From contig JAFXQO010000014.1 in assembly GCA_017527065.1 (NCBI GenBank), forward strand, positions 1 to 56,036: 56,036 bases of DNA, written 5' to 3'. Source of the stretch: Clostridia bacterium. GTDB lineage: Bacteria > Bacillota > Clostridia > Christensenellales > Aristaeellaceae. Under the pieces are notes generated by a model that was not told the DNA's origin, searched no databases, and worked only from the letters and a program-made list of their open reading frames with translations. A program made the position numbers and the translations under genes. This document shows, one piece after another, positions 20,988-42,006 of this stretch (within the stretch, counting starts at the first letter, position 1; each line of letters begins with the position of its first letter).

Positions 20988-21016
20988 TTGCACGGAGCCT
21001 TCTTTGGGTTTATAAT
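20988..21016 (+). promoter_or_regulatory. Promoter of the giant-adhesin operon
   Basis: TTGCAC (20988-20993), 17 nt, TATAAT (21011-21016). The leader down to ATG 21115 is very GC-rich and can fold (GGGCGCGCCCCGATCGGCG region), which may limit translation. Confidence 0.65.
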
Positions 21017-21114
21017 CTATGAGTTAAAATGTACTTGTGAGAGGAGCGCCCTTCGGCGGCGCGCCCCGATCGGCGGGGCGCGCGCGGCCGGCCGGCGCGG
21101 TAAATCTGGCAGAA

Positions 21115-21960
21115 ATGGAAGACAGGAAGAAAGAGATAGACCGCATCTACGAGGAGCTGACGACCCAGCGCGTGTCGGGCCGCAAGCTGACGGAGGCGGA
21201 CGTGAAGGCGCTGGCCGAGGCGCTGTCGGAGGCAATGAAGCCCCCGGAGCCCTCGGAGGCCGAGCGGAAGGCCGCGGAGGCGGAGAAGAAGGCGGCGAAG
21301 AAGCGCGCCCGGCGCGCCCGGCGGCGGCGTGAGTTCATCGGGATACTGCTCAGGCTCGCGGTGATCTACGTGTTGTTTTTCCAGATCCTGGGCGTCACGA
21401 TCATGCCCTCGGGCGATATGTCGCCCCGCATCGACAACGGGGACCTGGTGCTGTTCTACCGGCTGGACAGGGACGTGCGGGCGCAGGACGTGATTGTGCT
21501 CCAGAAGAACACGGAGAAGATTCAGCAGGCCGCGGCCGGACAGGACGGCGACGTGCCCGATATCGCCCTGCAGATCAGCCGGAGCGCGGCGGAGGATACT
21601 TCCCTCTGGGGCAAGACGAAGGCGGCGCTCCGCAGCGCGGCCCAGTGGCTGGGCATCGTGCGGCCGGACGGCATGCAGCTGTTCGTCTGCCGGGTGGTCG
21701 CCGCGGGTGGCGACATCGTGGAGATCACCGAGGGCGGCAGCCTGATCGTGAACGGCAACGCGCAGGTGGAGAGCAACATCTTCTATCCCACCACGTCCTA
21801 CATCGGGTTCACGGAGTATCCCCTGACGCTGAAGGACGACGAGTGCTTCGTGATGGCCGACAAGCGCAACGGCGGCGCGGACAGCCGCTTTTTCGGGGCG
21901 GTGTCCAGAGACGAGATACTGGGCTCCGTGATCACCATCGTGAGAAGAAACAACCTGTGA
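21115..21960 (+). CDS. Catalytically dead signal peptidase I-like protein (SipA-type pilus assembly factor)
   Basis: 281 residues from ATG 21115; an in-frame GTG at 21037 would prepend an Ala/Gly/Arg-rich stretch. Order: a charged cytoplasmic helical region (1-72, coiled-coil-like), one membrane span (about 74-93), and an extracytoplasmic S26 domain. Box B reads MPSGDMSPRIDNGDLVLFYR: where signal peptidase I has Ser before Met (G-x-S-M-x-P), here there is Asp101. Box D reads FVCRVVAAGGDIVEI, with Cys192 in place of the catalytic Lys of KRV. Box E (ADKRNGGADSRFFG) is intact. The fold is thus kept but both dyad residues are lost, exactly the positions altered in SipA (Spy0127) of the group A Streptococcus FCT pilus locus, a non-peptidase needed for pilus assembly. 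The next gene is a class B sortase, also as in that locus. Confidence 0.82.
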   Translation: MEDRKKEIDRIYEELTTQRVSGRKLTEADVKALAEALSEAMKPPEPSEAERKAAEAEKKAAKKRARRARRRREFIGILLRLAVIYVLFFQILGVTIMPSGDMSPRIDNGDLVLFYRLDRDVRAQDVIVLQKNTEKIQQAAAGQDGDVPDIALQISRSAAEDTSLWGKTKAALRSAAQWLGIVRPDGMQLFVCRVVAAGGDIVEITEGGSLIVNGNAQVESNIFYPTTSYIGFTEYPLTLKDDECFVMADKRNGGADSRFFGAVSRDEILGSVITIVRRNNL

Positions 21961-21995
21961 TTTGACGAAAATGCGGGGAAAGGAGGAGTCGGAAC

Positions 21996-23918
21996 ATGGC
22001 ATGGCGGAAGGATGAAGACATGCTGCAGAGCAAGACCGCGCACAGCGCGCCCGAGACGTCCCTCGTGGAAGACGTGCTGAACGCCGTGGTGAGCGCGGGC
22101 AGCAAGATCGTCAGCCTGAGCATGAGCCTGCTGGCGGGCGTGCTGGTGGTGTATTCCCTCTACGCCATTTCCGATTCGCTCATCACCCAGGAGAAGGCCA
22201 AGTCCGCCTCGGACGTATGGAATCTGCTGGGTGCACAGCCCGAAATCATCCAGAATATGGAGAACCCCCAGAACTCCACGACGCTGGAGGCGCTCAGGAA
22301 GAAGTACGAGGATTATCGGGCCTGGCTGACCGTCTATAATACGCACATCGACTATCCCGTGCTGCAAAGTGATAACGATCTTTACTACGCCTCCCACAAC
22401 CTGAACAAGGAGGCCAGCATGACCGGCTCCATCTACCTGGCGGCCGGCAACGACGGGTATTTTAAAGACAGCTATAATATCATCTACGGCCACCACATGG
22501 ACAACAGCGCCATGTTCGGCGACCTGGACAAATACAGGGACCGGGAGCATTATCCGGATTTCCTTGAAAACAACAATCAGGCCCTCATCGTGGCGCGCGA
22601 CGCCGTGTACGACGTGACGCTCTTCGCCGTGCTGATGACGGATGCCTACCAACCCACCGTTTACCCCTCTCCCCTGAGCGCAGATGGCAACGCCGCGGCT
22701 GTGCGCGCGTTCCTGCAGAATCTTTACGAGAACCCGGATCCGGAGGGCAAATCGGAGGTCGTGGCCTACGACGCCGAGACCGCCAAAACCGCGGAGAAGA
22801 TCGTGGCCCTGTCCACCTGCGCCTCGGCCACAACGAACGGGCGGCTCGTGGTTTTCGGCAAGATGGTCAAGCGCAACCTGCTGATGATCATGGCCGAGGG
22901 CTATGACGACATCTACGACGGCAAGAGCCACGGCCTCGGCTCCGTCAGCGTCACCTATGAAGAGGGCACCCTCATCGAATACAGCCTGGACGGCGAGACC
23001 TGGACGACCGAAGAACCCACCATCAAAGACGTCGGTTCCTTCGAGGTGTTTGTGCGCGCCACCAGCGAGACCCACGGCACCGACCAGACGAGCGTCATCC
23101 TGCGCGTGCGGCCGAGGCCCGTGACCATTAAGGCGCACGACATCCGCAGGAAGCAGGGAGAGCCCGATCCCAAGCTGACGGCCACCGTCGAAGAGGCCGT
23201 GCCTGACGGCGAGAAGAGGGGCCTGCTGGAGGGCGACACCGTGAACTACACCCTCCGCGACACCAACACGGTGGATGCGCCCGGCACCTTCAAGGGCGTC
23301 ATCGTGCCTTCCGGCCTGGAGGAGCAGGGCAACTACATTATCGAGTACATCCCCGGCGACCTGATCATCGAGGCGTCCGCTCCAGTGGTAACGCCGACCC
23401 GCAAACCCACCGTCACCTCACCCCCCGCGCCGTCCGTGACGCCGACCCGCAAGCCGACTGTCACCTCGACCGGCAAGCCGACCGTCACCTCGCCTCCCGT
23501 GCCATCCGTCACCTCGACCCCCGCGCCGTCTGTGACGCCGACGCCGCAGCCGGAGAACGGGCCGTACAAGCTGACCATCTACTACAGGCACATCATCACC
23601 GGCGAGATCGTGGCCGAGGAATATATCGAGCTGCTGCCGGAAGGCGAGCCGTACTCCGTGCCTTCGCCCGACGTGCCCGGCCTCACGGTTATGACGCCTG
23701 TCGTGGCCGGAATCATGCCGGCCAGCGACGTCGAGGTCACAGTGTTCTACTATCCGGGTGGCGCGCCGACACCGCCTGACGTTGTTGATCCCACGGCGCC
23801 TGAGGGCGATAAACCCACATCGCCCACGGGCGAACCCGGGCTTGTGATCCTGGAGAAATACAAGACGCCTTTGGGCATCAACGGCGCGAGACTGAATGTG
23901 GGCGACTGCTACGAATAA
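21996..23918 (+). CDS. Class B sortase fused to MBG-like and MucBP-like domains
   Basis: 640 residues. Membrane anchor at about 38-58; sortase domain about 80-295. NIIYGHHMDNSAMFGDLDKY carries the catalytic His (166/167), ALSTCAS the nucleophile Cys275, and NGRLVVFGK Arg283; the helix-rich His region is class B. Sortases usually end here. This one continues with an MBG/YGX-like region (about 300-460, including PVTIKAHDIRRKQGEPDP), a Thr/Pro linker of TPTRKPTVTS-type repeats (about 463-522), a MucBP-like domain (about 524-586: LTIYYRHIITGEIVAEEYI ... VTVFYYPG) and a short tail ending PLGINGARLNVGDCYE. The extra modules resemble those of wall adhesins, so the enzyme may itself reach out from the membrane or bind a ligand. 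It lies 35 nt after the SipA-like gene and is the likely transpeptidase for the giant protein. Confidence 0.87.
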   Translation: MAWRKDEDMLQSKTAHSAPETSLVEDVLNAVVSAGSKIVSLSMSLLAGVLVVYSLYAISDSLITQEKAKSASDVWNLLGAQPEIIQNMENPQNSTTLEALRKKYEDYRAWLTVYNTHIDYPVLQSDNDLYYASHNLNKEASMTGSIYLAAGNDGYFKDSYNIIYGHHMDNSAMFGDLDKYRDREHYPDFLENNNQALIVARDAVYDVTLFAVLMTDAYQPTVYPSPLSADGNAAAVRAFLQNLYENPDPEGKSEVVAYDAETAKTAEKIVALSTCASATTNGRLVVFGKMVKRNLLMIMAEGYDDIYDGKSHGLGSVSVTYEEGTLIEYSLDGETWTTEEPTIKDVGSFEVFVRATSETHGTDQTSVILRVRPRPVTIKAHDIRRKQGEPDPKLTATVEEAVPDGEKRGLLEGDTVNYTLRDTNTVDAPGTFKGVIVPSGLEEQGNYIIEYIPGDLIIEASAPVVTPTRKPTVTSPPAPSVTPTRKPTVTSTGKPTVTSPPVPSVTSTPAPSVTPTPQPENGPYKLTIYYRHIITGEIVAEEYIELLPEGEPYSVPSPDVPGLTVMTPVVAGIMPASDVEVTVFYYPGGAPTPPDVVDPTAPEGDKPTSPTGEPGLVILEKYKTPLGINGARLNVGDCYE

Positions 23919-24005
23919 ACCCATGGCTTCGCCGCTCTGACCGGAAGGAACAGGGCGGCGAAGCGGAACGGATTTGACGGATTCTGAAAGAGAGGAAACG
24001 CGGGT

Positions 24006-26486
24006 ATGAAAAAAGCAAAGTGGCTTGCCCTGCTGCTGGCAGCTTTTGCGCTGTCAGCCTGTTTCTCTGCCCTGACGGGCGGCGCGACAGCAGAGCCATC
24101 CGTGCCCGCGGAGACGGAGGACGAACGGGAGGTGGAGCGCGTCACCGTTGAGGTGGAGCGCGACATGGAACACCTGACCGTGGCCAATCCCACGCAGATG
24201 GAGGGCTTTTTCTTCACCAGCCAGTGGGACAACAACACCGCCGATATCGACGTCCGCGCCCTGCTGGATGGCTATAACCTGATCGAGTTTGATTGGGATG
24301 ACGGCAGCTACCGGGTGGATCCCAGCGTGGGCAGCGGCGTTGCGGTCACCGAAAATCAGGCGGGCGACAGGAGCTATCTGCTGGTGCTGTATCACGACCT
24401 GTATTTTTCGGACGGCTCTCCCATTACGGCCTGGGATTACGCCTTCTCCCTGCTGTTTTCCATCGACCAGCGGATCAACGACCTGGACGGCGACGCCGAC
24501 TGCCGGGACTACCTGCTGGGCTGTCAGGAATATCTCCTGCGCACGGCGGAGCTCAAGCGCACCCAGCTCGTCCGCCGGGACGGGCTGCTGGCGGAGCAGG
24601 TTTTGGAAGTGCGCCTGGAGGATTCCCCCGAGGGCGAGGCCCGGTACGCCGGCCCGGCTGAGGTCATGGGCGAGAGCGAGGGCCTGACCCTTTATCGAAA
24701 CGACGTGAACGAGCTGACCCTGGCGCCCGAGGACGACGCCGCCAGGCTCCGGCCGGTGCATGTGGACGCCCAGGGCTTCATCACGGACTGGCACTATGAA
24801 AACGGCGTGCGCGTCTTTAGCGACGGGAGCCACGGCGTGCTTTCTGGCGTCCGCGTGCTCTCCGACGACATGCTGATGATCACCGTCGACCATGAATACC
24901 TGCCCTACTTCTATCAGATGGGCATGCTGTACTGCGCGCCCTATCGCGCCTCGGCGGTGCTGCCGGGCGTGGAGGTGCGCGACGACGGCCTGGGTGCCTA
25001 CCTGGCCAACGCCGAGGAGCAGCCCCGGCCCCTGGAGGACGCCGACGCGCCCGTGTTCTCGGTGGAGAACCTGCGGGAGGCCCTGCTGGATCCGGAGAAC
25101 GGTTACCTGCGCCATCCCACCCTGAGCAGCGGGCCCTACACGCTGCTGTCCTTCGACGGCGTCACCGCGGAATTCGAGCTCAACCCCTGGTATAAGGGCA
25201 ATTCCAAGGGCGAGACGGCCACCATTCCCCGCCTCACCTATACGCTTGCGGAAAACGAGACCGCGGTGGAAAAGCTGGCTACCGGCGTGTTCGACGTGCT
25301 CAATAAAATGACCCGCGCCGACGTCATCAGCCAGTGCCTGGAGCTGATGATCAATAGTTCCTACCTCACCGTTGAGGAGGACGAGGAGAAGATCCTGGAG
25401 ACGGAATACGTGAGCCGCAACGGATACGGCATGACGACCTATCCCCGCATCGGCCTGAGCTACATCAGCTTCTGCTGCGAGCGGGATACCGTGTGCAGCC
25501 AGGCGGTGCGCCAGGCCATCGCATACTCCCTGGACCGGGATCAGCTGACCATGGACTACACCGGCGGCAATGGCATACGGGTGGACGGCTATTACGGCCT
25601 GGGCCAGTGGATGCTCAGCGTCGTGCAGGGCTTCGTTAGCTATCCCGTGCCCCCGCCCGAGGACGAGAACGACGTCGAGGCCTGGCAGGTCTATGACGAG
25701 GAGTTCGCCGCGTGGGAGGAGCTTTCGCTGGATACCCTGACGGCCTACACCCTCGATCTGGATGAGGCCCGCCGCCTGCTGGACGCGGACGGATGGGAGC
25801 TGAACGAGGATGGCATCCGGGAGAAGGACGGCGTCCAGCTGGCGCTGACCATGATCTATCCGGAGACCAACGAGATGGCCGAGAGTTTTCAGGAGTGGCT
25901 GGTGCCCAACCTGGAAGCGGTGGGCATCCAGCTGAACCTGGTTCCCGTGCCCAATGGAGCGCTGCAGCGCATGTTCTACCGCCAGATTCCCGATGAGGAA
26001 GACGCGTTGGAAATGGAGAAGCTCGGGCTGATCGACGCGGAGGGCGTCCGGCAGTTCGACATGATTTACATGGCGACCAACTTCGAGGTGGTGTTCGATC
26101 CCTCCGCGCAGTTCTCGCTGGTGGACGGCGTGTACGAATGGAAGAGCACCGGCTATGCAGACCAGGAGCTGTTCGATCTGGCATGGGATATGAGCCATAC
26201 CGAGGAAGGCCACACGCTGGAATACATGCAGCGCTGGATTGCCTTCCAGGAGCGGTTCAACGAAACGCTGCCCATGCTGCCGATCTACAGTAACGTCTAC
26301 TTTGATTTCAACATCGCCGAGCTGCAGGGCTACGACGTGGATGAGAACGTGACCTGGAGCCAGGCCATCGTCGGGTCGGCGCTGGTCCCGATGGAGGAGA
26401 CCAAAGTCGTCCCGGGCGAAGAAGGATCGGGCGAAGAGGAATTAGAGGAATCGTTTGACGACGATGAATTGATTATAATCGACTGA
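24006..26486 (+). CDS. Family 5 extracellular solute-binding lipoprotein in the adhesin operon
   Basis: 826 residues. A lipoprotein signal with lipobox LSAC (Cys19) is followed by an acidic linker and a family 5 (DppA/OppA-like) binding fold: SDGSPITAWDYAFSLLFSID, then LSSGPYTLLSFD, then VRQAIAYSLDRDQ. It is much longer than the usual 500-600 residues because of an inserted region (about residues 170-290) and a very acidic C-terminus (GEEELEESFDDDELIIID). Peptide-transport permeases or ATPases are absent; the neighbours are the sortase (87-nt gap) and the giant adhesin (27-nt gap). Its role in that operon is unknown. It could feed an unlinked Opp system, sense peptides, or act as a surface chaperone (inference). 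SD-like AGAGAGGAAACGCGGGT precedes ATG 24006. Confidence 0.82.
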   Translation: MKKAKWLALLLAAFALSACFSALTGGATAEPSVPAETEDEREVERVTVEVERDMEHLTVANPTQMEGFFFTSQWDNNTADIDVRALLDGYNLIEFDWDDGSYRVDPSVGSGVAVTENQAGDRSYLLVLYHDLYFSDGSPITAWDYAFSLLFSIDQRINDLDGDADCRDYLLGCQEYLLRTAELKRTQLVRRDGLLAEQVLEVRLEDSPEGEARYAGPAEVMGESEGLTLYRNDVNELTLAPEDDAARLRPVHVDAQGFITDWHYENGVRVFSDGSHGVLSGVRVLSDDMLMITVDHEYLPYFYQMGMLYCAPYRASAVLPGVEVRDDGLGAYLANAEEQPRPLEDADAPVFSVENLREALLDPENGYLRHPTLSSGPYTLLSFDGVTAEFELNPWYKGNSKGETATIPRLTYTLAENETAVEKLATGVFDVLNKMTRADVISQCLELMINSSYLTVEEDEEKILETEYVSRNGYGMTTYPRIGLSYISFCCERDTVCSQAVRQAIAYSLDRDQLTMDYTGGNGIRVDGYYGLGQWMLSVVQGFVSYPVPPPEDENDVEAWQVYDEEFAAWEELSLDTLTAYTLDLDEARRLLDADGWELNEDGIREKDGVQLALTMIYPETNEMAESFQEWLVPNLEAVGIQLNLVPVPNGALQRMFYRQIPDEEDALEMEKLGLIDAEGVRQFDMIYMATNFEVVFDPSAQFSLVDGVYEWKSTGYADQELFDLAWDMSHTEEGHTLEYMQRWIAFQERFNETLPMLPIYSNVYFDFNIAELQGYDVDENVTWSQAIVGSALVPMEETKVVPGEEGSGEEELEESFDDDELIIID

Positions 26487-26513
26487 CCTCAAAGGGCTGA
26501 GAAGGAGAAAGCT

Positions 26514-29500
26514 GTGAAGCTGAATATGAAACGTTTTGGTCGTAAAATCCTGTTGCAGATATGCGTGCTGACGCTGCTGTTCCAATCCGTGTTCGGCCAG
26601 GCGGAGTCGCTGCTGAGCGACGCCGGGCTGTTTGCGGAAGGGGATTCTGCGCCTATTTACAGCGAAGGGCAGGCGGACTATACCCTTCCGTCTGAGGAGC
26701 CGCCGCAGCCGGAGGAATCCGGGCAGGAGGCGTATGCGCCGCGGTCTGCGGAAGTGCAGGATCCGGACGAGCCAGAGCAGCCGACCGAGCCCGAGCAGCC
26801 GACCGAGCCCGAGCAGCCGACCGAGCCCGAGCAGCCCACCGAGCCTGAGCAGCCGACCGAGCCCGAGCAGCCGACCGAACCCGAGCAGCCGACCGAAACT
26901 GAGCAGCCGACCGAGCCCGAGCAGCCCACCGAGCCAGAGCAGCCGAGCGAGCCCGAGCAACCGAGCGAGCCCGAGCAACCCACTGAGCCAGAACAGCCGA
27001 TCGAGCCCGAGCAGCCGACCGAGCCTGAGCAGCCGGATCAGCCCGACGAACCCGACCAGCCCGAAACGCCGGAGGATACCGGCGAGGGCACCGGCGACGA
27101 GCCGCAGCCGACGGCTCAGCCCGTTCCCTTTCAGTATGATTTGACCGGCGATTACACCGCCGTCCACGTGGAAGGCGTGACCCAGGGCGAGCCGGTTCCC
27201 GCCGTTTCGCGGGTGAGCGCCGCCGCGCCGGAGAACGGCGTCGTGGCGGAGACCTGGCAGGCGGAGGCGGGGAAGAACGAACTGATCCTGACGGTGCGCC
27301 TGATCGTGCTGCCGGATGAGGCGATGAATGGAGAGGGAACGCTGTCGTTCCACGCCCTGATGGGCGGCGCTGTCAGCGTCGCGCTGCGCGACAACGTGAC
27401 GGTTGGCGACGAGGTCTCGGTCAAGACGCAGCAGGGCGGCCTCAACGGCGTCGCGCTGGTCTTTACGCCCGCGCCCCAGCCGACGCAGCCCGCGGTCGAA
27501 CCCCAGATCGAGAACGGCGCAAGGACGGCCCCCGAACCCGTCACGCTGCGCTATGAGGATAAGGAGAAGAACTACCGCGTCACCGTGAACTGCGGCGCGG
27601 ACGCGGGCATCCCGGAAGGCGCTTCCCTGGATGTGTTCCAGCTGAAAGCGGCTCCTTACCTGCCGCAAACCGTCGAAGCCCTGAAATGGACGGAAGACGA
27701 CGTGGTATACTACGCGAAGTTCCTGAACATCAGCATCGTGAGCGACGGCACAAAGCTCGAGCCCAAGGCGCCTGTCCAGATCAAAGTGGAGCTTCTCGAT
27801 GTGGAAGACGGCGCGATGGCGCTGCGCGTGGTTCACATGGACGGCGCGGCGGTGAAGGAACTGAAGCGGGAAATCACGCAGGAGACGGAAAAAACCGATA
27901 CGGAAGAATACGACATATCCGATATAAAAAAGAAGACGGTCGTGACCTTCGAGACGGACGCCCTGCAGGGCTTCGGCCTCTGCAACGCCCTGCGTCCGCA
28001 GGTCTCGAAGACCGGCGGCCCGGCCACCCTGACCGTGCTGGGCTTCGATATGGATCCCGTCGACCTGAGCGGCGCGCGACCGTCCCTCGAGGAAGGCGTT
28101 GAACAGCTGCAGGCCCTGTCCTTTGAAAAGGGACGGCGCGTGTGGGTGCGCGCGGAGCTGAACGACGGCGCGTCGCTGTCGGAGGGGGCCGCGGTGAAAC
28201 TCTACAGCCTGGCGGGCCAGGAACTGGGCGATGTGCTGATCGAGGCCTGCGCCGCCGGAAAGATGGAGCCCCTGGCCCTGCCCGAAGGAGCGGATGGCGT
28301 TGCGCTGGTGCTCGACTCGGGCTATCGCCGCCAGCGCATTGAAGCGAATTTGGAAGGCGGGGCCCTCGTCCTGGAGGGTATGATGCCCAAATCGGCCAAG
28401 GCCGAGGCGCGGGACGTCACGGCGCGCTATGCCGAAATGCCGGCGTCCGTGCCCGCGGCGCTGGCGCCGGTCGCCCTGGCGGCCTATGAGATCGGCGTGA
28501 ACGCGAACGGCAGCGCATATCAGCCGGACGCCGCGCGTCCCCTGTCCGTCACCCTGCGCGATGGCCGCATCGCCGCGGGGGATCACATCCAGCTGTGGCG
28601 CATCGGGGCCGACGGCCAGGCGAAGCGGCTGGACGACTGCGCCCTGACGGCGGGCGAGGTTCGCTTCGACGCCGCGGAGACGGGCGTTTACGCCGTCGTT
28701 GAGACCATTCGCGACCTGACGGCCGAGGGCGCCGACATGAGCGGCGACCGGGTCACCATAGAATATGACAACCGCTCCGGCATTCCCGCCGGCGCGGCGC
28801 TTGTCGTGTCCGAAGCCGGGGATGACGAGTACACGGCGTACCTGAACGCCGCCGCGTCGGCCCTGGGCGTCGGCGCGGGCAGCCTGTCCTACGCCAAAGC
28901 CCTGGATATCGCCTTCGTCAAGGACGGCGAGACGTACCGGCCCAGCGCGCCGGTCACCGTGACAGTGGCCCTGAGCGACGCTCAATACCAGGACAGCCTG
29001 ACGGCGATGCGGGTTGACGACGGCGAAACAAGTATCCTGATCGCTTCGGCCAGCGGGACCATGACCTTTGAAACCGACGGCCTTGGCGTGTTCTGCTTTG
29101 CGGACACCGGACTGGCCGATATTTCCGTCTCCGCCGACGTGGGCGGGAACGGTTCTGTGACCCTTTCCGGCGCGATGCCCGCGCTGAGTGTTGCTGAGGC
29201 AAAGCCGGCGAGCGGATCGGTGAAAGGCGCGGAAACGCTCCTGGCCTGTGAGATCGGCCTGTACGCCAGCCCGCTGACGGCGCGGCTGGGCGTCGAATGG
29301 CAGCCTGAGACGCCCATTGAGGTCAGGGTCGACAGCGCCGCCCTGGCCGTGGACGCCGTCGACATTTACCGCGTGGACGGACAGCCCGAGCTGGTGGCCG
29401 AGAACCTGGCGGTGGAGAACAGCGGCGTGACATTCCGGGTTTCCGAGCCCGGAACCTATACCGTCGTCCACTGGGAGATAACAGACTACGGTCGGAAAAC

Positions 29501-35500: not shown

Positions 35501-38500
35501 CGTTGTACACTTCGCCGGGAGCGAGGAGCCGCCGCAGGAGATCGACGCGGAGACCAACGGGAAGACGGTCTTCTTCCAGACGGGCGGCTTCTCGGTCTAT
35601 GCCATCGTGGATGCACCCGCCCCATATGTCCTCAACGGCCTCCAAACGGTAGATGATCTGGACGAGCTGGCCACGAATTATGCTGACCCCGACACCGGCG
35701 GCAGGGGCTTCTATCTGTCTTATGGCGCGACTCCTAAATACTGCACCAATACGTTGAATAGTAATAACGCTTTCGTTGAGAATTCGAATATCTCAATCGC
35801 AAGCAGATGGTTTTTTGAAAGCGCGGAAGCGGAAAATACCTATTATATCTATACCTACGTCAACGAAGAAAAGAAATACATGAAGAACACCGACGGCAAT
35901 CTGATGGGACTTGACGAGTCAGACCGCACCGCGTTCGTTCTTTCCCAGGCTGACCCCAACAAGTTCTATTTCCAGGTTGACGGAGAAAACAAATGGTTCC
36001 AGCATTCCGGCGGCGGTAACGGTATGCGCTTATATCAAGATAAGAACAACGCCGATAACTCTCGGCTCACCCTGACCTATGTTTCGTCAAACGAGATTCC
36101 GGACGATTATTACCAGCTCGACGGAGAAACCTTCAGCATCGCCTTCCACGAGGAGAGCGTGTTCGGCGCCGGCATGACTTCAACGCTCTCTGGCGGAAAA
36201 TTGCAGGCAGAGACGCTGATCGTGCGCCCGGACGTTCTCAGCAACAACGGCGAGCTTTTGGTCGCGAAGGATACGGACCTGGCAGACTGGACCTTTGAGA
36301 ATATCAGCGGCGTAAACTACTATATCACCACTCAGATTGGCGGCGCGAAGAAATATCTCACCCTGAACGGCAACAACATCACGCTGGCAGACACCCCGAC
36401 CAATAACTCTGTGATTACGGTAACGTCCGGCACGGGCGACCAGGCCGGCAAGTATAAATTCTCCGTCGGGAATAAGGCGCTCACGCTGAGCGGCGGCAAG
36501 GTGGCGGGCGGTTTTGTCAGTTCAGACAGCGGCGACAATTACTCCTGGCTGAACCTTGTCACAAAATCCGCCCTGCTGTCGGACGATGATTTCACCGTGT
36601 ACAGCGCGGAGAAGGTCGACCTGTCCGACAATACGAAAGTGCCGAACGGCCAGGATGTGGTCATCTATACCCGTAAATGGAACGACACCACCAAGCGTTA
36701 CGAGTTCTTCGTTGTCAACTACAACGGCACCCTGATGCGCGGTTATGAGAGCGGCGATATGATCCAGTGGACAGGCAGCAGCATCAATACGGCGGAATGG
36801 GATTTTACCGAGTATTATGACAACGACGGGAATCCCAACTATTATTACCAGCTGCAAAACCTCTATCCCGGCGACGCGAGCAGCAACTGCATACGCCCGG
36901 CGGCCGACGGCACCTACCTGAGAACGGAGAGCACCTATCCGAGCTCTTTTGACCGCAGTATCAACCTGAACGGCCGCCGCTACGGGTATTACTATACCAC
37001 CATACTGGCCTGGGATGACGCCAGCTACGGCTATATCGGCCTGCGGGTAAAGGACGACCGCAGCGGGCTGGAGGTCTGCTCCATGGAGGAGGCGGACACC
37101 TTCTACTTTGCCACCATGAAGCCTTTGGTTCAGACTCCGGAGCCAACCACCGTGGCGACGGTGGATCACGAGGCGTACGGCATTACCCTAAAGATGAAGA
37201 ATTACGATCGGACTAACAATTATTATGCCAATACCAGTAATGGTAGGCAGGACACCTCGCGTGAGCAGGATGAGGTGCTGGGGACAAACAAATGGGGCGC
37301 AGGCAGCTATGCCCCGGGCCTGCTCAGCACCAAGCTGGATGACAATGGCTATCCGATGGTGGTGTCGCCTGGACATACGAGTAATTCTCTCTCGGAGCTG
37401 TACAGCGGCGCGACGCCGGTCAACCATCTCTTTATTGAGAACACCTACTATTCCAGTGGCTACTATGAGTTTGACAGCACGCAGAACTTTGCCTCGTTCT
37501 ACGACCAGGATTCCAATTCATGGGATTACAGAAATTTCACAGTCTATGAGGAGCTTGGCACCAACGATACCAAGAACTCGGAGTCGATGAAGCACGGTCA
37601 GTTCCTGCCGTATAATAAGCTTTCGCAAACTCCGGCTTCCCTAAACCCCGTGAACCTGTATGACGCCGTCCTGAATGAGCTGCCGGACAGCAACCCCAGA
37701 AAGGGCGAGCAGCTCCGTCTGGTCGCCAATGCGTCCGGAAACACGGGCAACAGTGCGACCGACTACTGCTTCGGTATGGAACTCGAGGCTTCCTTCACCC
37801 AGACCGTCAGCGGCCAGGACGCCTGGGGCCACGATATCATCTATGAATTCACCGGTGACGACGACTTCTGGCTGTATGTGGACGGCGAGCTGATCATCGA
37901 CTTGGGCGGCATCCACAGCGCCATGTCTGCTTCCGTCAACTACCGTACGGGCCAGGTCACGGTCAACGGCACCCCAAAGACGCTTCGCCAGATCTTTGAG
38001 AAAAACTACAGAGATCGTAATCCCAACGCCACAGATGCTGAAGTGGCCATTTTCCTCGCCAATTATTTTGAAGGCGATGAACACATCTTCAAGGATTACA
38101 GCAACCACACCATGCGCATCTTCTACATGGAGCGCGGCCTGGGCGCTTCCAACCTGCACATGCGCTTCAACCTGGCTTCCGTGAAGCCCGGCACCGTGGA
38201 GCTGAGCAAGCAGATCAAGGGCGTGGACAGCACGGAATCCTTCATGGCCGAATATCCCTTCCAGATCTTCTTTAAAAAGCAAGAGCCTGAACCGGGCCAA
38301 ACGGAGCCATTAGAGCAACAGTATATTCCCGGAGGCGCTGGTACCGGAGGCATCACCGTAAAATACAAGGATACCACCAGAGATGTTACGTACATACCTA
38401 ACTATACCGCGGCCGATGGCACTACGAACTATGCGCACGTCTTCCTGCTCAAGCCGGGGGAGACGGCGGTGATTAACTTCCCGGACCAAGCCTGGACATA

Positions 38501-41500
38501 CCGAATTCAGGAATGCTTTGTGAATACGCGCGTTTACGAAACGGTGTATGTCAACGACAATAGGATCATCGGCACGATCCCGGGTTCGACCCCGAGCGCT
38601 ATCGTTTATCAGACGACGACTGATCCCAACGAGGGCGATCCCGTGCCGGGCCAAACCGATCAATACTATCTGTGGCGGAGAGATGCGGATACACATGAAG
38701 TCATCTTAGATCCTTACAAGAACAAGCCTGTGTATGAGCCTGTGTCCAATTCCACGCGCGGAGACTTTGACTCCGGTTATGCCCTGGTTTCCGACCGCGC
38801 CCGCATCACCTTTACCAACGTGGTGGACGCCACCGCTAAGGGCACGCTGACCTTTGTCAAGCATCTGTATGCGGAAGACGGCACAACCCCGATCCCTCAC
38901 GCGAACAGCGATACGACCTTCGCCTTCCGTCTTTCTCTGGGCACTGAAAACACACCCGACGGCGACCTCCCGCTGGCGGATCTGCACAGCTATCACGTGA
39001 AGGATGAACATGGTTATTACTGCGTCTGGAATCAGAGTACAGGCGGCTTTGACTCGCTGGGCGTGTCGAATTTCGAATCTCTGACCGCTGCCCAGAAGGC
39101 CTCGGCCACCTTCACGACCTCCATGAACGGCACGATCGCAAACATCCCCGTCGATTACACGGTGGAGGTCCGCGAAGTCAGTGCCGGCACCAAGTACAAG
39201 GTGGAGGAGCGCGACTACGAGCTGCCCGACGGCTACACCCTGCAGTGGTATGTGCCGTATGTGGAGAATACGAGTACAGGCGCTCTCGAGGTGGGTACCA
39301 AGAGCAAGAACCCCGTCTCCGGCATTATTGCTCCGGGTCTTGGTGCGAAGGCCGAGATTCGCAACCTCAAGGGCTGGGGCCTGCGCGTATACAAAGACTG
39401 GTCTGACGCGGACTGGATGCAGTCCCGCGACCCGGTCTATTTCGCGATGTATATTCTGAACAATGGGAATCTGGAGTTGGTGGACGGCACCGTAAAACAG
39501 CTTGAATATGGAAAAGAGTCGGTCTATTGGTTCTTCGAGCATCTGGATTCCCGGGCCAACGGCGACTTTGACAATTATGAACCACGCGAGGTGATCCTCG
39601 CCGGCGGAACGCCCAGTGTGGACGCAAATGGCGTTGTGACCAATGCCGCCTCCCTGACCGTTTACCCGGTCGCCGTGGACGGCACGGGCCGGTTCGGGGT
39701 GGAAGGGAGACAGATCGGAGAAACTTCAGATGCTTTCTATACCTATAAGTTCGTACAGTATACCAAGGGTACAATGCCCACGGGCGCGAATGTCCGCGTT
39801 GATAACATGTACAACAAGCGCCAGGGCATCGACCTGTATCTGACGCAATGGAACGGCACGACGCCGTTGGCCGGCGGCACCTTTACGCTGAAAGACGCCA
39901 GAGGCTATCCCGCCGGCCAGGGCACCTTCACCTCGGACGCGAACGGCCTGATCACCATAGGCTATCTGCGGGCAAATGAGGAGTATACCCTGACGCAGAC
40001 CGCCTCGCCCTCGGGCTACATCGGCCTGCAGACGCCGCTGATCATCGAGCGCGACGAGCCCGCAAACGAAAATGATCCGGTGAGAGTGACCGTCACCTAC
40101 CCCGACGGTACCTCGACTTCATGGACCCAGGAAACCAACAATGAAATAACCAACGGCAAGTGTGACGGCGATATCTGGTGGACGCTGGACGATCACGATG
40201 TCGAAAGCGGCATGGACACGACCTACGGCAAAATCATCGTTCGGAACAAGCCCTTCAGCCTGAACATCAAAAAAACGACTATGGATGGAACCTCGCTGTC
40301 CGACGTCATCTTTGCCCTGTACAGGCAGGTTACAGGCAATGACGGCCAGCCCAGGAAGGACTACCAGCCGATTGCGAATTACGACAATCTGGTAACGGAC
40401 AGCGCCGGCTTCGTGCCGCAAATCCAGTTGGGTTTCGAGAACGGCACGCTTCTGCCCGGCACCTACTACCTGCATGAAACAAATCCTTTGGCCGGGTTCA
40501 GTCCCCTGAGCAGCGATGTTCTGTTCACGGTCAGCAGCACAGGTGTCGTTACGCTGGATACTTCTTACAGCCCGTCCGGCGTGGCGCTCCAGGAAGAGAC
40601 AGTCGGTTCTTATACCATTGTCGTTCCCAATCAGAACCTCGACAAAGTAGATCTGACCATTGCGAAAAGGATTGAAAACGGTACGACAAAGGACCTGGCC
40701 GGGACGAACACCTTCGCTTTCACCGCGAAGCTCTATCTGCCTGACGGGATGACGCCGTGGAATAGTTATACAGGCGGCGGCTTTACCAACGGCACGGCCA
40801 GCTTCTCGCTTGGACATTACGGGACGCAGGTCCTTAAGGTGCCCCTCAATGCGGTGGTGACTGTCACGGAGACGGCCCAAAATGCCTATACGACGACGAC
40901 CTCGTTCGCGGCGACGGACCAGACTAAAACGACGACCTCCACCTGCGACTATAACGACGCCGCCAGCCTGCTTTCGACCGTGCACATCAAGGATACGGAA
41001 CCTGTGACCCTGACCTACATCAACACCCGTAAAACGGTGAAGGTGACGGTGGAAAAAGAGGTGGTCGGCATTGGCGGAACCTTTAACTTCACGGCGACGC
41101 TGATGGATGGGTCTGTGCTCTGCGAGGGCTGGACGTTGAATAATAACGGCACTTCCAGCAATCCCTCGGATGACATCATTACAGGTGACGGCAACAACGG
41201 CACAAGAGCGGGCGTAGCGACCTTCTCGCTCAGTCCCAATGCGAACTCAAAGGTGTCGCGGGATCTGACCATCCCCTACGGCGCTTCGCTGACGGTCACA
41301 GAGGATCCGGGCAGCTATGAGACAAAGGTGAAGATCGGCAGCGGCAGCGAATCAACCGGCGGGACAGCGACGCTGTCCTCCCGCACGTCGAATATAACCG
41401 TTAAATTCAAAAACCTGATGAATGCCAATCTGACCGTCTCCAAGACCGTCACCGGTGATTTCGGCGATAGGACGAAACCGTTCACCTTTACCGTCGAAGG

Positions 41501-41930
41501 CCTTCCCAGCGGTGAAAGCTATACCTATACGAAGGAAGCCACCACCGACGGAACAACCTGGACGGCAGTGTCGGGCGGCGGCTGGACGCTGACCAGCATC
41601 AGCAAAACCTTCACGCTCACAGACCGCCAGAGAGTTGTGATCGAGGGCCTGCCGCTGAACACGACCTTCACGGTTACGGAGGATCCAGACTCTTATACGG
41701 CCACCTGGACGGCGACGGACAGCCATCTGATCGATGTTAACTCCGAAACAAACGGAAAGTCGTTCAAGCTGACCGGAAACGCGGAAATCTCCGTGACCAA
41801 CAACCTCAACGCCGTCTCTCCCACCGGCCTGCGCTTTACCTACGCCCCCTTCCTCCTGATGGCCTGCGCCGGCATGATGCTGGCCCTGATCGCGAGAATC
41901 GGCCGCAAGCGCCGCAAGGGAAAGGAGTAA
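26514..41930 (+). CDS. Giant modular cell-wall-anchored adhesin / pilin-like surface protein (5,138 aa)
   Basis: GTG 26514 is taken as start because GAAGGAG lies 6 nt before it; the next ATG (26526) is too far from the SD. Order: signal peptide (1 to about 30); a Glu-Gln-Pro-Thr repeat (about 86-184); repeated beta-rich units (about 310-1080); a BspA-like LRR segment (about 1090-1340; IGWSAFNGCSAL, IGEDAFRDCAAL); further beta-rich units including a long tandem repeat of about 420-residue modules (1905-3033); a region with ricin-trefoil-like KYMKN/WFQH motifs (about 3040-3540); a fibro-slime domain (about 3552-3886; FTGDDDFWLYVDGELIIDLG at 3779); then SpaA/Cna-B/FctA-like pilin domains (about 3890-5090) with Lys- and Glu-containing motifs such as VSKTVTG and VTEDPDSY that suit intramolecular isopeptide bonds. 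It ends in VSPTG (5101-5105), a hydrophobic span and KRRKGKE. It is the presumed substrate of the operon's class B sortase. Confidence 0.88.
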   Translation: MKLNMKRFGRKILLQICVLTLLFQSVFGQAESLLSDAGLFAEGDSAPIYSEGQADYTLPSEEPPQPEESGQEAYAPRSAEVQDPDEPEQPTEPEQPTEPEQPTEPEQPTEPEQPTEPEQPTEPEQPTETEQPTEPEQPTEPEQPSEPEQPSEPEQPTEPEQPIEPEQPTEPEQPDQPDEPDQPETPEDTGEGTGDEPQPTAQPVPFQYDLTGDYTAVHVEGVTQGEPVPAVSRVSAAAPENGVVAETWQAEAGKNELILTVRLIVLPDEAMNGEGTLSFHALMGGAVSVALRDNVTVGDEVSVKTQQGGLNGVALVFTPAPQPTQPAVEPQIENGARTAPEPVTLRYEDKEKNYRVTVNCGADAGIPEGASLDVFQLKAAPYLPQTVEALKWTEDDVVYYAKFLNISIVSDGTKLEPKAPVQIKVELLDVEDGAMALRVVHMDGAAVKELKREITQETEKTDTEEYDISDIKKKTVVTFETDALQGFGLCNALRPQVSKTGGPATLTVLGFDMDPVDLSGARPSLEEGVEQLQALSFEKGRRVWVRAELNDGASLSEGAAVKLYSLAGQELGDVLIEACAAGKMEPLALPEGADGVALVLDSGYRRQRIEANLEGGALVLEGMMPKSAKAEARDVTARYAEMPASVPAALAPVALAAYEIGVNANGSAYQPDAARPLSVTLRDGRIAAGDHIQLWRIGADGQAKRLDDCALTAGEVRFDAAETGVYAVVETIRDLTAEGADMSGDRVTIEYDNRSGIPAGAALVVSEAGDDEYTAYLNAAASALGVGAGSLSYAKALDIAFVKDGETYRPSAPVTVTVALSDAQYQDSLTAMRVDDGETSILIASASGTMTFETDGLGVFCFADTGLADISVSADVGGNGSVTLSGAMPALSVAEAKPASGSVKGAETLLACEIGLYASPLTARLGVEWQPETPIEVRVDSAALAVDAVDIYRVDGQPELVAENLAVENSGVTFRVSEPGTYTVVHWEITDYGRKTGRSGLANESGHVVWTEYADGDVRTLVFSAVNGGSGEECAILTLLDEDGSPARDSLAGTTNRIALESGVTGVGWTYLYRRNDGEPAWPEAYAVDQSKTDIFKGFVSLTEVVPCDTLERIGWSAFNGCSALSRFDFTLCPNLKEIMNQAFYNCAALDVIDLSACASLETLGWSCFYGTGCGQNPSLALPAGGSLSTIGGYAFYNFGRSVQDVPVDFSAVSSTVTAILQNAFNGARISGELVGFERLETIGRSAFRGANITRIDLDGGSLMSIGEDAFRDCAALAYLSFGDAASLTALGGNAFCGDVNLASIRDKATGREIWFRDQAAGLFPNALIPDSAFDGTGLMTVSLGTLTAALAEEGLTVSVSGLLPEGGSLKVEPVSRTAQDAKVLHALAFSILDKNGRTWEDGKALTVRLASQRIEEARGKALSVLAGEQPVAFEADGDALAFTADEAGAFAVIAAYERLAYAFTSGDDALSVLAFLSENGIQAASIGSAACGSDAVALTEADGDVVARPQGYFGEARVTVEADGETVILLLRWPQPVEQTVEAEIPAEVPVDSLTVSGELPPDATVTVASAEAPQELKEDAILLSVDITIDNGYQPEAPVLVTVQSDAIADVVEGGGDVFVIHTLEDGTLELADIVSLEGSTLVFSADHFSQYSVIGAVVQKLNTWTNALCDVAVYGYSVIKPTYTAVTGIELEEGLELLQASAVSYNGGISALLGQLNKMYVSLTKNDAAQGARESVQVYGLRDGLLSTLLAENPLADARIELGDAEGFAIVRDTGFRRLSFDLANVALSGLMPKQASASAEDVLEDYAKARAEELAFTGDQVLAAYDISILEGQADYQPDEEHPVTVAIAGVRAGDPALVELRHVKDDGTEESVEFTLDDEGVLRFVATAFSVYAVVETRLTETVAASDGNTYEINVTYKNTAGIPMTGTQLLVSEIAADDEAYAAYVAASAEKVGAKEKNIEFARAFDIRIVDEKDHDRVYEPADDVEVSIRLVGETLAGYANVGVLHFVKDRKADGYTIYDMESVIDGETIGFTTDSFSVYVVTGYTIEKIVETGDGETYKITVEYNETAGIPAGADVVVSEVSEADYEAYLTQAAETLGLDIHNASYGKLFDIAIVKDGVEYQPNQAVTVTVELLDAVSVGDVQVVHFGEGTSASKLEAATEGSAVTFETEGFSVFSFLDFSLLDQILSAVLGEKNGVLYENDDIIRTGHLPATGIVEANRVDVGLGERETLVAYDIKIYAGAIMKALGIAWQPSEDSVQVKLKSDALNVEYADVYHMADASAEPEMVTRNVAVENHSVTFDAGAFSIYGVTETKLTETIEASDGNTYEISVTYKNTAGIPMEGTALLVSELKAGDEGYDEFIAASAQKVGAKAENIEMSRVFDIQIVDENDHSTVYEPTGDVEVSIRLVGETLNNYPNLDVLHFVENRNEEGFTVYDMNSIIDGETVEFTTDSFSVYVVAGYTIEKIIEASDGNTYKITVTYDERAGVPEDAELEVTEVAEEDYAAYLTAAAEALEADVHSIAYGKLFDISIVKDGVAYQPNDSVTVTVELLEADAESVGDVRVVHFGDENEATALTTSTDGTTVTFETDGFSIFSFLDFSIVSKTIEAALNVVITDLSGETTGTLYENDDIILTGSMPTYGIVEANRVEIEVNGTAALVAYDIKIYANSFMKALGITWQPSEDSVQVKLKSDALNVEYADVYHMADASAEPEMVTRNVAVEDHSVTFDAGAFSIYGVTETKLTETIEASDGNTYEISVTYKNTAEIPMEGTALMVSEILPEEETYASYMEQSAEALGTKAEHIEFARLFDIKIVDAEDPEQIYTPVSDVDVSIRLVGAALDDYANVGVLHFAENTEGEGYTVNGVESTASGETVEFITDSFSVYVVAGYALETTIETGDGNTYHISVTFLEDAELPEDAQLSVVELHAEEYQDYLDRTAAALDREGFGYARFFDISIVNSAGEKIQPSASVTVSVDLLNTDDAAMEYAVVHFAGSEEPPQEIDAETNGKTVFFQTGGFSVYAIVDAPAPYVLNGLQTVDDLDELATNYADPDTGGRGFYLSYGATPKYCTNTLNSNNAFVENSNISIASRWFFESAEAENTYYIYTYVNEEKKYMKNTDGNLMGLDESDRTAFVLSQADPNKFYFQVDGENKWFQHSGGGNGMRLYQDKNNADNSRLTLTYVSSNEIPDDYYQLDGETFSIAFHEESVFGAGMTSTLSGGKLQAETLIVRPDVLSNNGELLVAKDTDLADWTFENISGVNYYITTQIGGAKKYLTLNGNNITLADTPTNNSVITVTSGTGDQAGKYKFSVGNKALTLSGGKVAGGFVSSDSGDNYSWLNLVTKSALLSDDDFTVYSAEKVDLSDNTKVPNGQDVVIYTRKWNDTTKRYEFFVVNYNGTLMRGYESGDMIQWTGSSINTAEWDFTEYYDNDGNPNYYYQLQNLYPGDASSNCIRPAADGTYLRTESTYPSSFDRSINLNGRRYGYYYTTILAWDDASYGYIGLRVKDDRSGLEVCSMEEADTFYFATMKPLVQTPEPTTVATVDHEAYGITLKMKNYDRTNNYYANTSNGRQDTSREQDEVLGTNKWGAGSYAPGLLSTKLDDNGYPMVVSPGHTSNSLSELYSGATPVNHLFIENTYYSSGYYEFDSTQNFASFYDQDSNSWDYRNFTVYEELGTNDTKNSESMKHGQFLPYNKLSQTPASLNPVNLYDAVLNELPDSNPRKGEQLRLVANASGNTGNSATDYCFGMELEASFTQTVSGQDAWGHDIIYEFTGDDDFWLYVDGELIIDLGGIHSAMSASVNYRTGQVTVNGTPKTLRQIFEKNYRDRNPNATDAEVAIFLANYFEGDEHIFKDYSNHTMRIFYMERGLGASNLHMRFNLASVKPGTVELSKQIKGVDSTESFMAEYPFQIFFKKQEPEPGQTEPLEQQYIPGGAGTGGITVKYKDTTRDVTYIPNYTAADGTTNYAHVFLLKPGETAVINFPDQAWTYRIQECFVNTRVYETVYVNDNRIIGTIPGSTPSAIVYQTTTDPNEGDPVPGQTDQYYLWRRDADTHEVILDPYKNKPVYEPVSNSTRGDFDSGYALVSDRARITFTNVVDATAKGTLTFVKHLYAEDGTTPIPHANSDTTFAFRLSLGTENTPDGDLPLADLHSYHVKDEHGYYCVWNQSTGGFDSLGVSNFESLTAAQKASATFTTSMNGTIANIPVDYTVEVREVSAGTKYKVEERDYELPDGYTLQWYVPYVENTSTGALEVGTKSKNPVSGIIAPGLGAKAEIRNLKGWGLRVYKDWSDADWMQSRDPVYFAMYILNNGNLELVDGTVKQLEYGKESVYWFFEHLDSRANGDFDNYEPREVILAGGTPSVDANGVVTNAASLTVYPVAVDGTGRFGVEGRQIGETSDAFYTYKFVQYTKGTMPTGANVRVDNMYNKRQGIDLYLTQWNGTTPLAGGTFTLKDARGYPAGQGTFTSDANGLITIGYLRANEEYTLTQTASPSGYIGLQTPLIIERDEPANENDPVRVTVTYPDGTSTSWTQETNNEITNGKCDGDIWWTLDDHDVESGMDTTYGKIIVRNKPFSLNIKKTTMDGTSLSDVIFALYRQVTGNDGQPRKDYQPIANYDNLVTDSAGFVPQIQLGFENGTLLPGTYYLHETNPLAGFSPLSSDVLFTVSSTGVVTLDTSYSPSGVALQEETVGSYTIVVPNQNLDKVDLTIAKRIENGTTKDLAGTNTFAFTAKLYLPDGMTPWNSYTGGGFTNGTASFSLGHYGTQVLKVPLNAVVTVTETAQNAYTTTTSFAATDQTKTTTSTCDYNDAASLLSTVHIKDTEPVTLTYINTRKTVKVTVEKEVVGIGGTFNFTATLMDGSVLCEGWTLNNNGTSSNPSDDIITGDGNNGTRAGVATFSLSPNANSKVSRDLTIPYGASLTVTEDPGSYETKVKIGSGSESTGGTATLSSRTSNITVKFKNLMNANLTVSKTVTGDFGDRTKPFTFTVEGLPSGESYTYTKEATTDGTTWTAVSGGGWTLTSISKTFTLTDRQRVVIEGLPLNTTFTVTEDPDSYTATWTATDSHLIDVNSETNGKSFKLTGNAEISVTNNLNAVSPTGLRFTYAPFLLMACAGMMLALIARIGRKRRKGKE
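26770..27063 (+). repeat. 18-bp tandem repeat coding E-Q-P-T-E-P
   Basis: About 16 units of 18 bp (consensus GAGCAGCCGACCGAGCCC) encode a Pro/Glu stalk near the N-terminus of the giant protein. Variant units (EQPSEP, EQPIEP, TETEQP) cluster toward the end. Such repeats change copy number by slippage. Confidence 0.9.
32226..35610 (+). repeat. Long intragenic tandem repeat (about 1.25-1.28 kb period)
   Basis: Modules begin at 32226, 33480 and 34764, each with TET-x-x-ASDGNTYEI; the last is incomplete. The first two are 418 and 428 codons long. Each module contains related beta-rich subunits ending in motifs such as FTTDSFSVYVV, FETEGFSVFSFLDF and FDAGAFSIYGVTET. Segments 33264-33557 and 34548-34841 are almost identical in DNA (offset 1,284 bp), showing recent duplication or gene conversion. 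Confidence 0.85.
41814..41930 (+). other. Non-canonical cell-wall sorting signal (VSPTG)
   Basis: This is the C-terminus of the giant protein: VSPTG, a spacer with APF, a hydrophobic stretch (LLMACAGMMLALIA) and the basic tail RKRRKGKE. Classical LPXTG is absent; the xPTG pattern resembles the EVPTG/QVPTG signals used by class B pilus sortases. Confidence 0.8.
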
Positions 41931-41963
41931 CGCGCTTCACGGGCAAAACAAGTTCATAGACGG

Positions 41964-42006
41964 AAGCGCTTCCCAAAGCCGTCCCCGGCCTGGGAAGCGC
42001 TTTTTT
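41964..42006 (+). terminator. Rho-independent terminator of the adhesin operon
   Basis: AAGCGCTTCCCA pairs with TGGGAAGCGCTT across a 15-nt loop and runs into six T. Strong terminator 33 nt after the stop of the giant gene. Confidence 0.9.

What the first reader, a model, noticed from the sequence alone, without database searches (positions are those of the whole stretch)
20988..42006. Four-gene operon building a giant surface fibre: dead signal peptidase, class B sortase fusion, binding lipoprotein, 5,138-aa adhesin
Seen: four co-directional genes with gaps of 35, 87 and 27 nt between one promoter and one strong terminator. Known: the group A Streptococcus FCT pilus pairs a non-catalytic signal-peptidase homologue (SipA/Spy0127), a class B sortase (Spy0129) and a pilin with an xPTG signal. 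Inferred: this locus is a distant version of that machinery, with all structural modules (stalk repeats, LRR, fibro-slime, SpaA/FctA-like domains) on one polypeptide instead of separate pilins, plus a solute-binding lipoprotein as a fourth component. I know of no described system with exactly this set.
Basis: partly seen in the sequence, partly recalled or inferred. Interest (0 to 1): 0.85.

Follow-up and report, generated by a model that had tools for sequence, protein, structure and literature searches.

The report
Pilus operon with tailed sortase
A gut bacterium carries a set of four genes that looks like a distant cousin of the Streptococcus pilus-building machinery, and one of its enzymes ends in a short conserved tail that, in related bacteria, is usually followed by the gene for a peptide-binding-type protein, a pairing whose purpose is not yet known.

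Summary
The four genes, their gaps (35, 87, 27 nt) and the terminator are real. Gene 1 is a non-catalytic SipA-like protein (best solved match S. pyogenes SipA). Gene 2 is a class B sortase (best match Spy0129 by sequence and fold). Gene 4 is a 5,138-aa surface protein ending VSPTG plus membrane anchor. The comparison with FCT pili holds. The claim that one polypeptide replaces separate pilins does not: the same genome has an unlinked FctA-like small pilin ending ISPTG, and 12 of 15 related loci encode that pilin beside the sortase.

The novel part lies elsewhere. The sortase ends in a tail, about PLG...NVGDCYE-stop. In relatives the tail sits on sortases, small secreted proteins and giant repeat proteins. 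Directly upstream of the gene-3-type protein it stands in 71 of 77 readable loci; 0 of 614 other genes there end in it. Searched by tail instead, 32 of 36 places had that gene next. My paper searches found no description. A fold test gave no support for docking of the tail, so binding is inference. Verdict: new variant of the class B sortase pilus operon, carrying an apparently undescribed tail plus binding-protein module.

The parts
20988..21016 (+). possible promoter TTGCAC-17-TATAAT
   Evidence: read directly; not listed by the scan (-35 matches 3 of 6)
21037..21960 (+). gene 1: SipA-like, signal-peptidase fold without Ser-Lys dyad (box B GDMSP, box D CRVVA)
   Evidence: Peptidase_S26 1.9e-15; best PDB match SipA 4n31 5.5e-14; boxes read
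21996..23918 (+). gene 2: class B sortase with N-terminal membrane helix, MBG domain, proline-rich linker, MucBP-like domain and C-terminal tail
   Evidence: MucBP-like by similarity to the L042 tail protein, not by a Pfam hit of this protein
23835..23915 (+). conserved C-terminal tail (last 27 residues, ...YKTPLGINGARLNVGDCYE)
   Evidence: tail profile A4 matches with E 2.7e-10, 42.1 bits (this tail is one of the 63 rows of A4)
24006..26486 (+). gene 3: SBP_bac_5 (oligopeptide-binding type) protein with LSAC lipobox and no permease gene beside it
   Evidence: SBP_bac_5 1.7e-28; predicted fold closest to AppA 1xoc and lactococcal OppA
26514..41930 (+). gene 4: 5,138-aa surface protein; Pro-Glu repeats, LRR, fibro-slime, SpaA, DUF7601
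29793..30110 (+). BspA-type leucine-rich repeats in the giant
   Evidence: PF13306 2.8e-23
37791..37961 (+). fibro-slime domain in the giant
   Evidence: TIGR02148 4.6e-12
41427..41774 (+). last stalk domain, DUF7601, also found in the small pilins
41814..41927 (+). sorting signal VSPTG, membrane helix, basic tail
   Evidence: read
41962..42004 (+). intrinsic terminator hairpin
   Evidence: z -5.5

Best explanation
The four genes are a class B sortase pilus-assembly operon of the FCT type. Shown: a dyad-less SipA-like protein, a class B sortase closest to Spy0129 with readable His, Cys and Arg, and a giant protein with an xPTG sorting signal. Inferred: the sortase cleaves VSPTG of the giant, which acts as tip adhesin, and ISPTG of a small FctA-like pilin encoded on another contig, which forms the shaft; the SipA-like protein acts as assembly chaperone. 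Shown: the sortase carries a C-terminal tail that in relatives, on very different proteins, is followed by a gene of one SBP_bac_5 clade without permease genes. Inferred, and the weakest step: the binding protein recognises this C-terminal tail, so that in the window it docks on the sortase stalk next to the site of pilus assembly, and elsewhere on giant surface proteins.
For: Genes 1 and 2 best match SipA and Spy0129 among solved proteins. Same order SipA-like, sortase, binding protein in 15 of 15 sortase-holding loci among 80. In 13 of 13 loci of the window's type with a readable box the Ser position is Asp and the Lys position Cys or Ser, while S26 proteins of tail loci of another kind keep Ser and Lys in 6 of 8 readable rows; sortases tested at loci of that other kind match class C best, 5 of 5, all under the 160-bit cut-off (143.4 in L042; 87.5-110 in L083, L076, L078, L080). 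Unlinked pilin in own genome. Tail upstream of the binding protein: 71 of 77 (63 by strict pattern, 8 variants by eye); 17 of 17 clade loci against 0 of 12 readable ordinary ABC-type loci; 32 of 36 when searched by tail; 0 of 614 other genes. Of 68 distinct tails the last residue is E or D in 68, Gly at -5 in 66, Cys at -3 in 60. Fold closest to peptide-binding AppA/OppA.
Against: AlphaFold test of docking gave no support: tail confidence 54/54/61 when fused by linker to the binding protein, 53/54/50 in the sortase alone. Tail and binding-protein similarity correlate (r 0.387, largest of 500 shuffles 0.178), but linkage alone could give that. 6 of 77 binding proteins and 4 of 36 tails lack the partner next door. 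Cys at -3 is not strict. The pilin is not in the operon. The sortase class model is a little under its cut-off. No experiment.
Confidence: 0.55

Rival explanations
1. The tail is a surface-attachment or processing signal read by machinery not yet identified; the binding protein is a co-encoded accessory that does not itself bind the tail.
For: In stand-alone giants (G035 4978 aa, G028 2705 aa, G434 4280 aa) the tail stands where a sorting signal would be expected. The fold test shows no docking.
Against: No membrane helix or basic end follows the tail. The sortase that bears it is already held by its N-terminal helix (model), so it needs no anchor. No other gene was seen to be as constant a neighbour, though I did not count others.
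Confidence: 0.25
2. Gene 3 is an ordinary peptide importer component that borrows a permease encoded elsewhere, and its place in the operon has no bearing on the pilus.
For: Its fold is that of AppA/OppA, and related ABC-type proteins of the same order do have permease genes downstream (L062-L073 rows).
Against: The clade follows tailed proteins in 71 of 77 loci, mostly without lipobox (10 of 80 match a loose pattern); ordinary ABC-type loci lack the tail, 0 of 12 readable.
Confidence: 0.1
3. The giant is anchored to the wall as a single molecule by the linked or the second sortase, without polymer.
For: The operon lacks a shaft pilin; the genome has a second class B-like sortase beside a protein ending IPKTN plus membrane helix.
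Against: An unlinked small pilin of the same family exists; the SipA-like plus class B pair is the known polymerising pair in S. pyogenes (passages of PMC4049620 and PMC7900414).
Confidence: 0.2
4. One reading: one giant polypeptide replaces separate pilins in this system.
For: No pilin gene in the window operon; L094, L101 and L102 also show none (L094 and L101 are cut near the sortase by the contig end).
Against: Own-genome pilin on contig C10, E 4.1e-97; pilin present in 12 of 15 loci.
Confidence: 0.06

Closest known systems
Group A Streptococcus FCT-2/3/4 pilus operon (SipA/LepA, class B sortase Spy0129, Cpa, FctA, FctB)
   Same: SipA-like protein without the Ser-Lys dyad, class B sortase, xPTG sorting signals (EVPTG and QVPTG in passages of PMC3019223), FctA-like pilin in the genome.
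   Different: Pilin unlinked in the window's genome; sortase fused to MBG and MucBP-like domains and a C-terminal tail; binding-protein gene added; adhesin 5,138 aa; Lys site is Cys, not Gly.
Oligopeptide-binding proteins AppA/OppA (SBP_bac_5)
   Same: Predicted fold, Pfam family.
   Different: No permease genes beside it; follows a tailed surface protein; a loose lipobox in only 10 of 80 relatives.
LPXTG-type cell wall sorting signals
   Same: Short conserved C-terminal element shared by unrelated surface proteins.
   Different: The tail has no membrane helix and no basic end; it stops at E or D (68 of 68); usually followed by the binding-protein gene.
S. pneumoniae pilus islet 2
   Same: Sortase B structure 4y4q is the second PDB match of gene 2.
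   Different: Only the sortase was compared; the islet's gene content is recalled, not examined.

Membership tests
FCT-type class B sortase pilus | class B pilin sortase | tested here: met
   Spy0129 best by sequence and fold; TIGR03064 146.8 bits, under its 153.75 cut-off
FCT-type class B sortase pilus | SipA homologue lacking Ser-Lys dyad | tested here: met
   SipA 4n31 best; Asp at the Ser site as in SipA, Cys where SipA has Gly
FCT-type class B sortase pilus | xPTG signal, membrane helix and basic end on the adhesin | tested here: met
   VSPTG at 41814
FCT-type class B sortase pilus | FctA-like shaft pilin in the same operon | tested here: not met
   None between the genes of the window operon; one on contig C10 of the genome; 12 of 15 related loci have one
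FCT-type class B sortase pilus | basal anchor pilin (FctB-like) | not tested
   no search made
FCT-type class B sortase pilus | covalent polymer on cells | not testable with these tools
   needs protein work
Peptide ABC importer binding protein | SBP_bac_5 fold | tested here: met
Peptide ABC importer binding protein | permease genes adjacent | tested here: not met
   neighbours in the window are sortase and giant; clade loci show none directly downstream
Peptide ABC importer binding protein | peptide binding | not testable with these tools
   needs purified protein
LPXTG-like sorting signal (for the tail) | motif followed by membrane helix and basic residues | tested here: not met
   tails end at the motif

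The most novel reading that the evidence does not exclude
The tail and the orphan binding protein form a previously undescribed surface-docking system: a C-terminal peptide address shared by sortases, small secreted proteins and giant repeat proteins, read by a dedicated peptide-binding protein that has left nutrient import. In the window it ties the binding protein to the pilus sortase.
Probability: 0.35. Interest if true: 0.85.

Novelty: new variant of a known kind. Interest (0 to 1): 0.62.

Why it matters
It extends the SipA plus class B sortase pilus type from streptococci to rumen and gut Clostridia, where pairing of dead S26 with class B and intact S26 with class-C-like sortases offers a natural comparison for the open question why class B pilus sortases need SipA (raised in PMC7900414, passage). 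The tail gives a simple, checkable marker for surface proteins that have no known sorting signal, and an unusual possible role for a peptide-binding protein. If the tail is bound, it would be a new way to place proteins on a Gram-positive-type surface.

Tried and rejected
Docking by fold prediction: fused tail plus binding protein against sortase alone; no gain in tail confidence, so no support. No coordinates are given out, so contacts could not be read.

Tail as an LPXTG-like signal: rejected for lack of membrane helix and basic end. Tail as part of the preceding domain: disfavoured, since it follows proline-rich linkers on proteins with different domains.

Conserved disulfide or lipidated cysteine: not required, Cys at -3 in 60 of 68, else Thr, Ala or Ser.

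Loss of an OppA ligand contact as a sign of altered binding: the profile alignments do not cover that residue for OppA, and the related 9p48 protein looks alike there; dropped.

Spread outside the order: 391 genomes of the class gave the window's own tail and two partial matches (13 and 16 of 27 positions). That sample holds few members of the window's family.

Paper searches (listings only, unless passages are named): tail strings (5 papers, none on bacterial surface proteins by title and abstract start), sortase with SBP_bac_5, sortase with Christensenellales/Aristaeella, class B sortase pili in Clostridia, orphan binding proteins, C-terminal tails. Passages only were seen of PMC4049620, PMC7900414 and PMC3019223. 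The library lacks most subscription papers and all preprints.

Limits: one search scored only the two best candidates per genome; one search kept 80 of 228 relatives. The whole-genome handles and the named contigs overlap (for example G014 with L095 and L139, G057 with L168, G035 with L156), so the tallies 71 of 77, 17 of 17 and 32 of 36 are not independent; near-identical loci (L146, L147, L150) are counted apart.

Full report
Observation. The window is contig C49 of a genome of 3.07 Mb in 85 contigs, 89% complete. The four genes lie as described, with gaps of 35, 87 and 27 nt and a strong hairpin terminator. The promoter has a perfect -10 but a poor -35 and was not listed by the scan.

Gene 1. 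Pfam finds a signal peptidase fold. Among solved proteins the best matches are two S. pyogenes entries, SipA 4n31 (E 5.5e-14) and LepA 4k8w (4.2e-12); true signal peptidases come last (E 0.56 and 0.9). The alignment puts Asp at the catalytic Ser, as in SipA (Asp48), and Cys where SipA has Gly85 and signal peptidases Lys. In 13 of 13 loci of the window's type with a readable box the residue is Asp, with Cys (12) or Ser (1) at the Lys site; the sortase of one of them, L033, is cut by a contig end. In the type with separate sortase and tail protein the pairs are D/G (L106, L111), N/G (L107), G/A (L103), R/unread (L043) and unread/G (L113). S26 proteins downstream of the binding protein in a third type of locus keep Ser and Lys in 6 of 8 readable rows; L141 has T/K and L171 N/R. 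The sortases tested in five loci of that type match the class C model best, with 143, 88, 110, 106 and 103 bits, all under its 160 cut-off.

Gene 2. The best solved match is Spy0129 (3psq, E 2.2e-27), also the top Foldseek hit of the model (mean pLDDT 71.7). His (YGHHM), Cys (LSTC) and Arg (GRLVVFG) are readable. After the sortase domain come an MBG domain, a proline-rich linker, a MucBP-like stretch and the tail.

Gene 3. An SBP_bac_5 protein whose model (tail and protein together, mean pLDDT 88.0) is closest to AppA with a nonapeptide and lactococcal OppA. The window's copy has a lipobox; a loose lipobox pattern fits 10 of 80 relatives, and 58 of 80 end in an acidic stretch, at least 30% D or E in the last 25 residues.

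Gene 4. 5,138 aa with LRR, fibro-slime, SpaA and DUF7601 domains and VSPTG, helix and basic end.

Relatives. A sortase search in 120 relatives found matches in 80, but only five or six loci close to the window's enzyme. A scan of 84,980 species genomes with the gene-3 alignment gave 228 relatives, best 80 kept, nearly all rumen and gut Clostridia metagenome assemblies. Of these 80, 15 hold a class B sortase of this type; all 15 show SipA-like gene, sortase and binding protein in that order, 12 also a small pilin. In 9 the sortase itself carries the tail (8 by pattern plus L097 by eye); in 6 a separate tailed protein lies between sortase and binding protein. Read as a fusion, this suggests that sortase and tailed protein work together.

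Pilin. A profile of nine relatives' pilins (A6) finds one full-length match in the own genome, contig C10 24289-25701, E 4.1e-97, inside a 490-aa frame ending ISPTG, helix and basic end, with no sortase or SipA-like gene in the 20 kb read. The second full-domain match is the giant's own last domain; the other 46 matches of the call are short or weak stretches, mostly near the profile's N-terminal end. So a shaft pilin exists, unlinked. Its use by this sortase is inference from the shared signal.

Tail and binding protein. In 81 binding proteins of the 80 loci, 4 start at a contig edge; of the other 77, 63 have a strict tail directly upstream, 8 a variant judged by eye (L097, L102, L109, L112, L119, L129, L144, L161), and 6 none (L116, L122, L127, L143, L148, L167). 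In the same loci 0 of 614 other genes end in the strict tail. In 396 genomes of the order, 17 of 17 examined clade loci have a tail or degenerate tail upstream, while 0 of 12 readable loci of lower-scoring ABC-type proteins have one (one of 13 unreadable). The reverse search, a 27-position tail profile in 150 relatives, gave 36 places at E 1e-5 or better; 32 have the clade gene directly downstream, 4 do not, all four in genomes G068 and G029. These sets share genomes and are not independent. Own genome: one tail, one clade protein. Of 68 distinct tails, the end is E or D in 68, Gly at -5 in 66, Asn or His at -7 in 64, Cys at -3 in 60. Pfam and NCBIfam gave no family for the tail of the window's sortase, and Pfam gave none for the 267-aa tailed protein of L043.

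Tests of binding. Fused to the binding protein, tail confidence was 54, 54, 61 per ten residues, the linker after it about 30-40; in the sortase alone the tail had 53, 54, 50. There is no gain, so the test does not support docking. Tail and binding-protein similarity correlate over 63 pairs (r 0.387, highest of 500 shuffles 0.178), which common inheritance of a gene pair would also give.

Reading. The operon works like, and is built like, the class B sortase pilus system of S. pyogenes, but the shaft pilin is elsewhere, and a tail plus binding-protein module, seen also with class-C-like sortases and with stand-alone giants, has been added and fused to the sortase. The likeliest use of that module is docking of the binding protein on the tail (inferred, about one in three to two in five). 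I found no paper that describes it.

Noticed in passing
window 19728-20855: Upstream neighbour is a Cthe_2159 carbohydrate-binding protein (PF14262, 1.8e-65), probably a separate unit.
   Followed up: partly
L206 (G029:C20): Two consecutive giant tailed proteins (1832+ and 3535 aa in the stretch read) with no binding-protein gene directly downstream.
   Followed up: no
L037 / L168 (G057): A class B sortase of 2,362 aa, the sortase domain extended by a very long repeat region before the tail.
   Followed up: no
L094-L173, C-termini of the binding proteins: Many binding proteins themselves end in an acidic stretch with aromatic or aliphatic residues (58 of 80 with at least 30% D/E in the last 25 residues); meaning unknown.
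   Followed up: no
L039, L083, L085, L086, L089 upstream of tailed giants: Secreted proteins of about 400-1000 aa precede several tailed giants and end in similar sequences; one (L089) has bacterial SH3 domains.
   Followed up: no
G000:C29, L234 8392-10716: Second class B-like sortase of the genome beside a 420-aa protein ending IPKTN and a membrane helix.
   Followed up: partly
L035 (G014:C24): The giant of this relative is split in two overlapping frames (648 and 2,810 aa); left as found.
   Followed up: no
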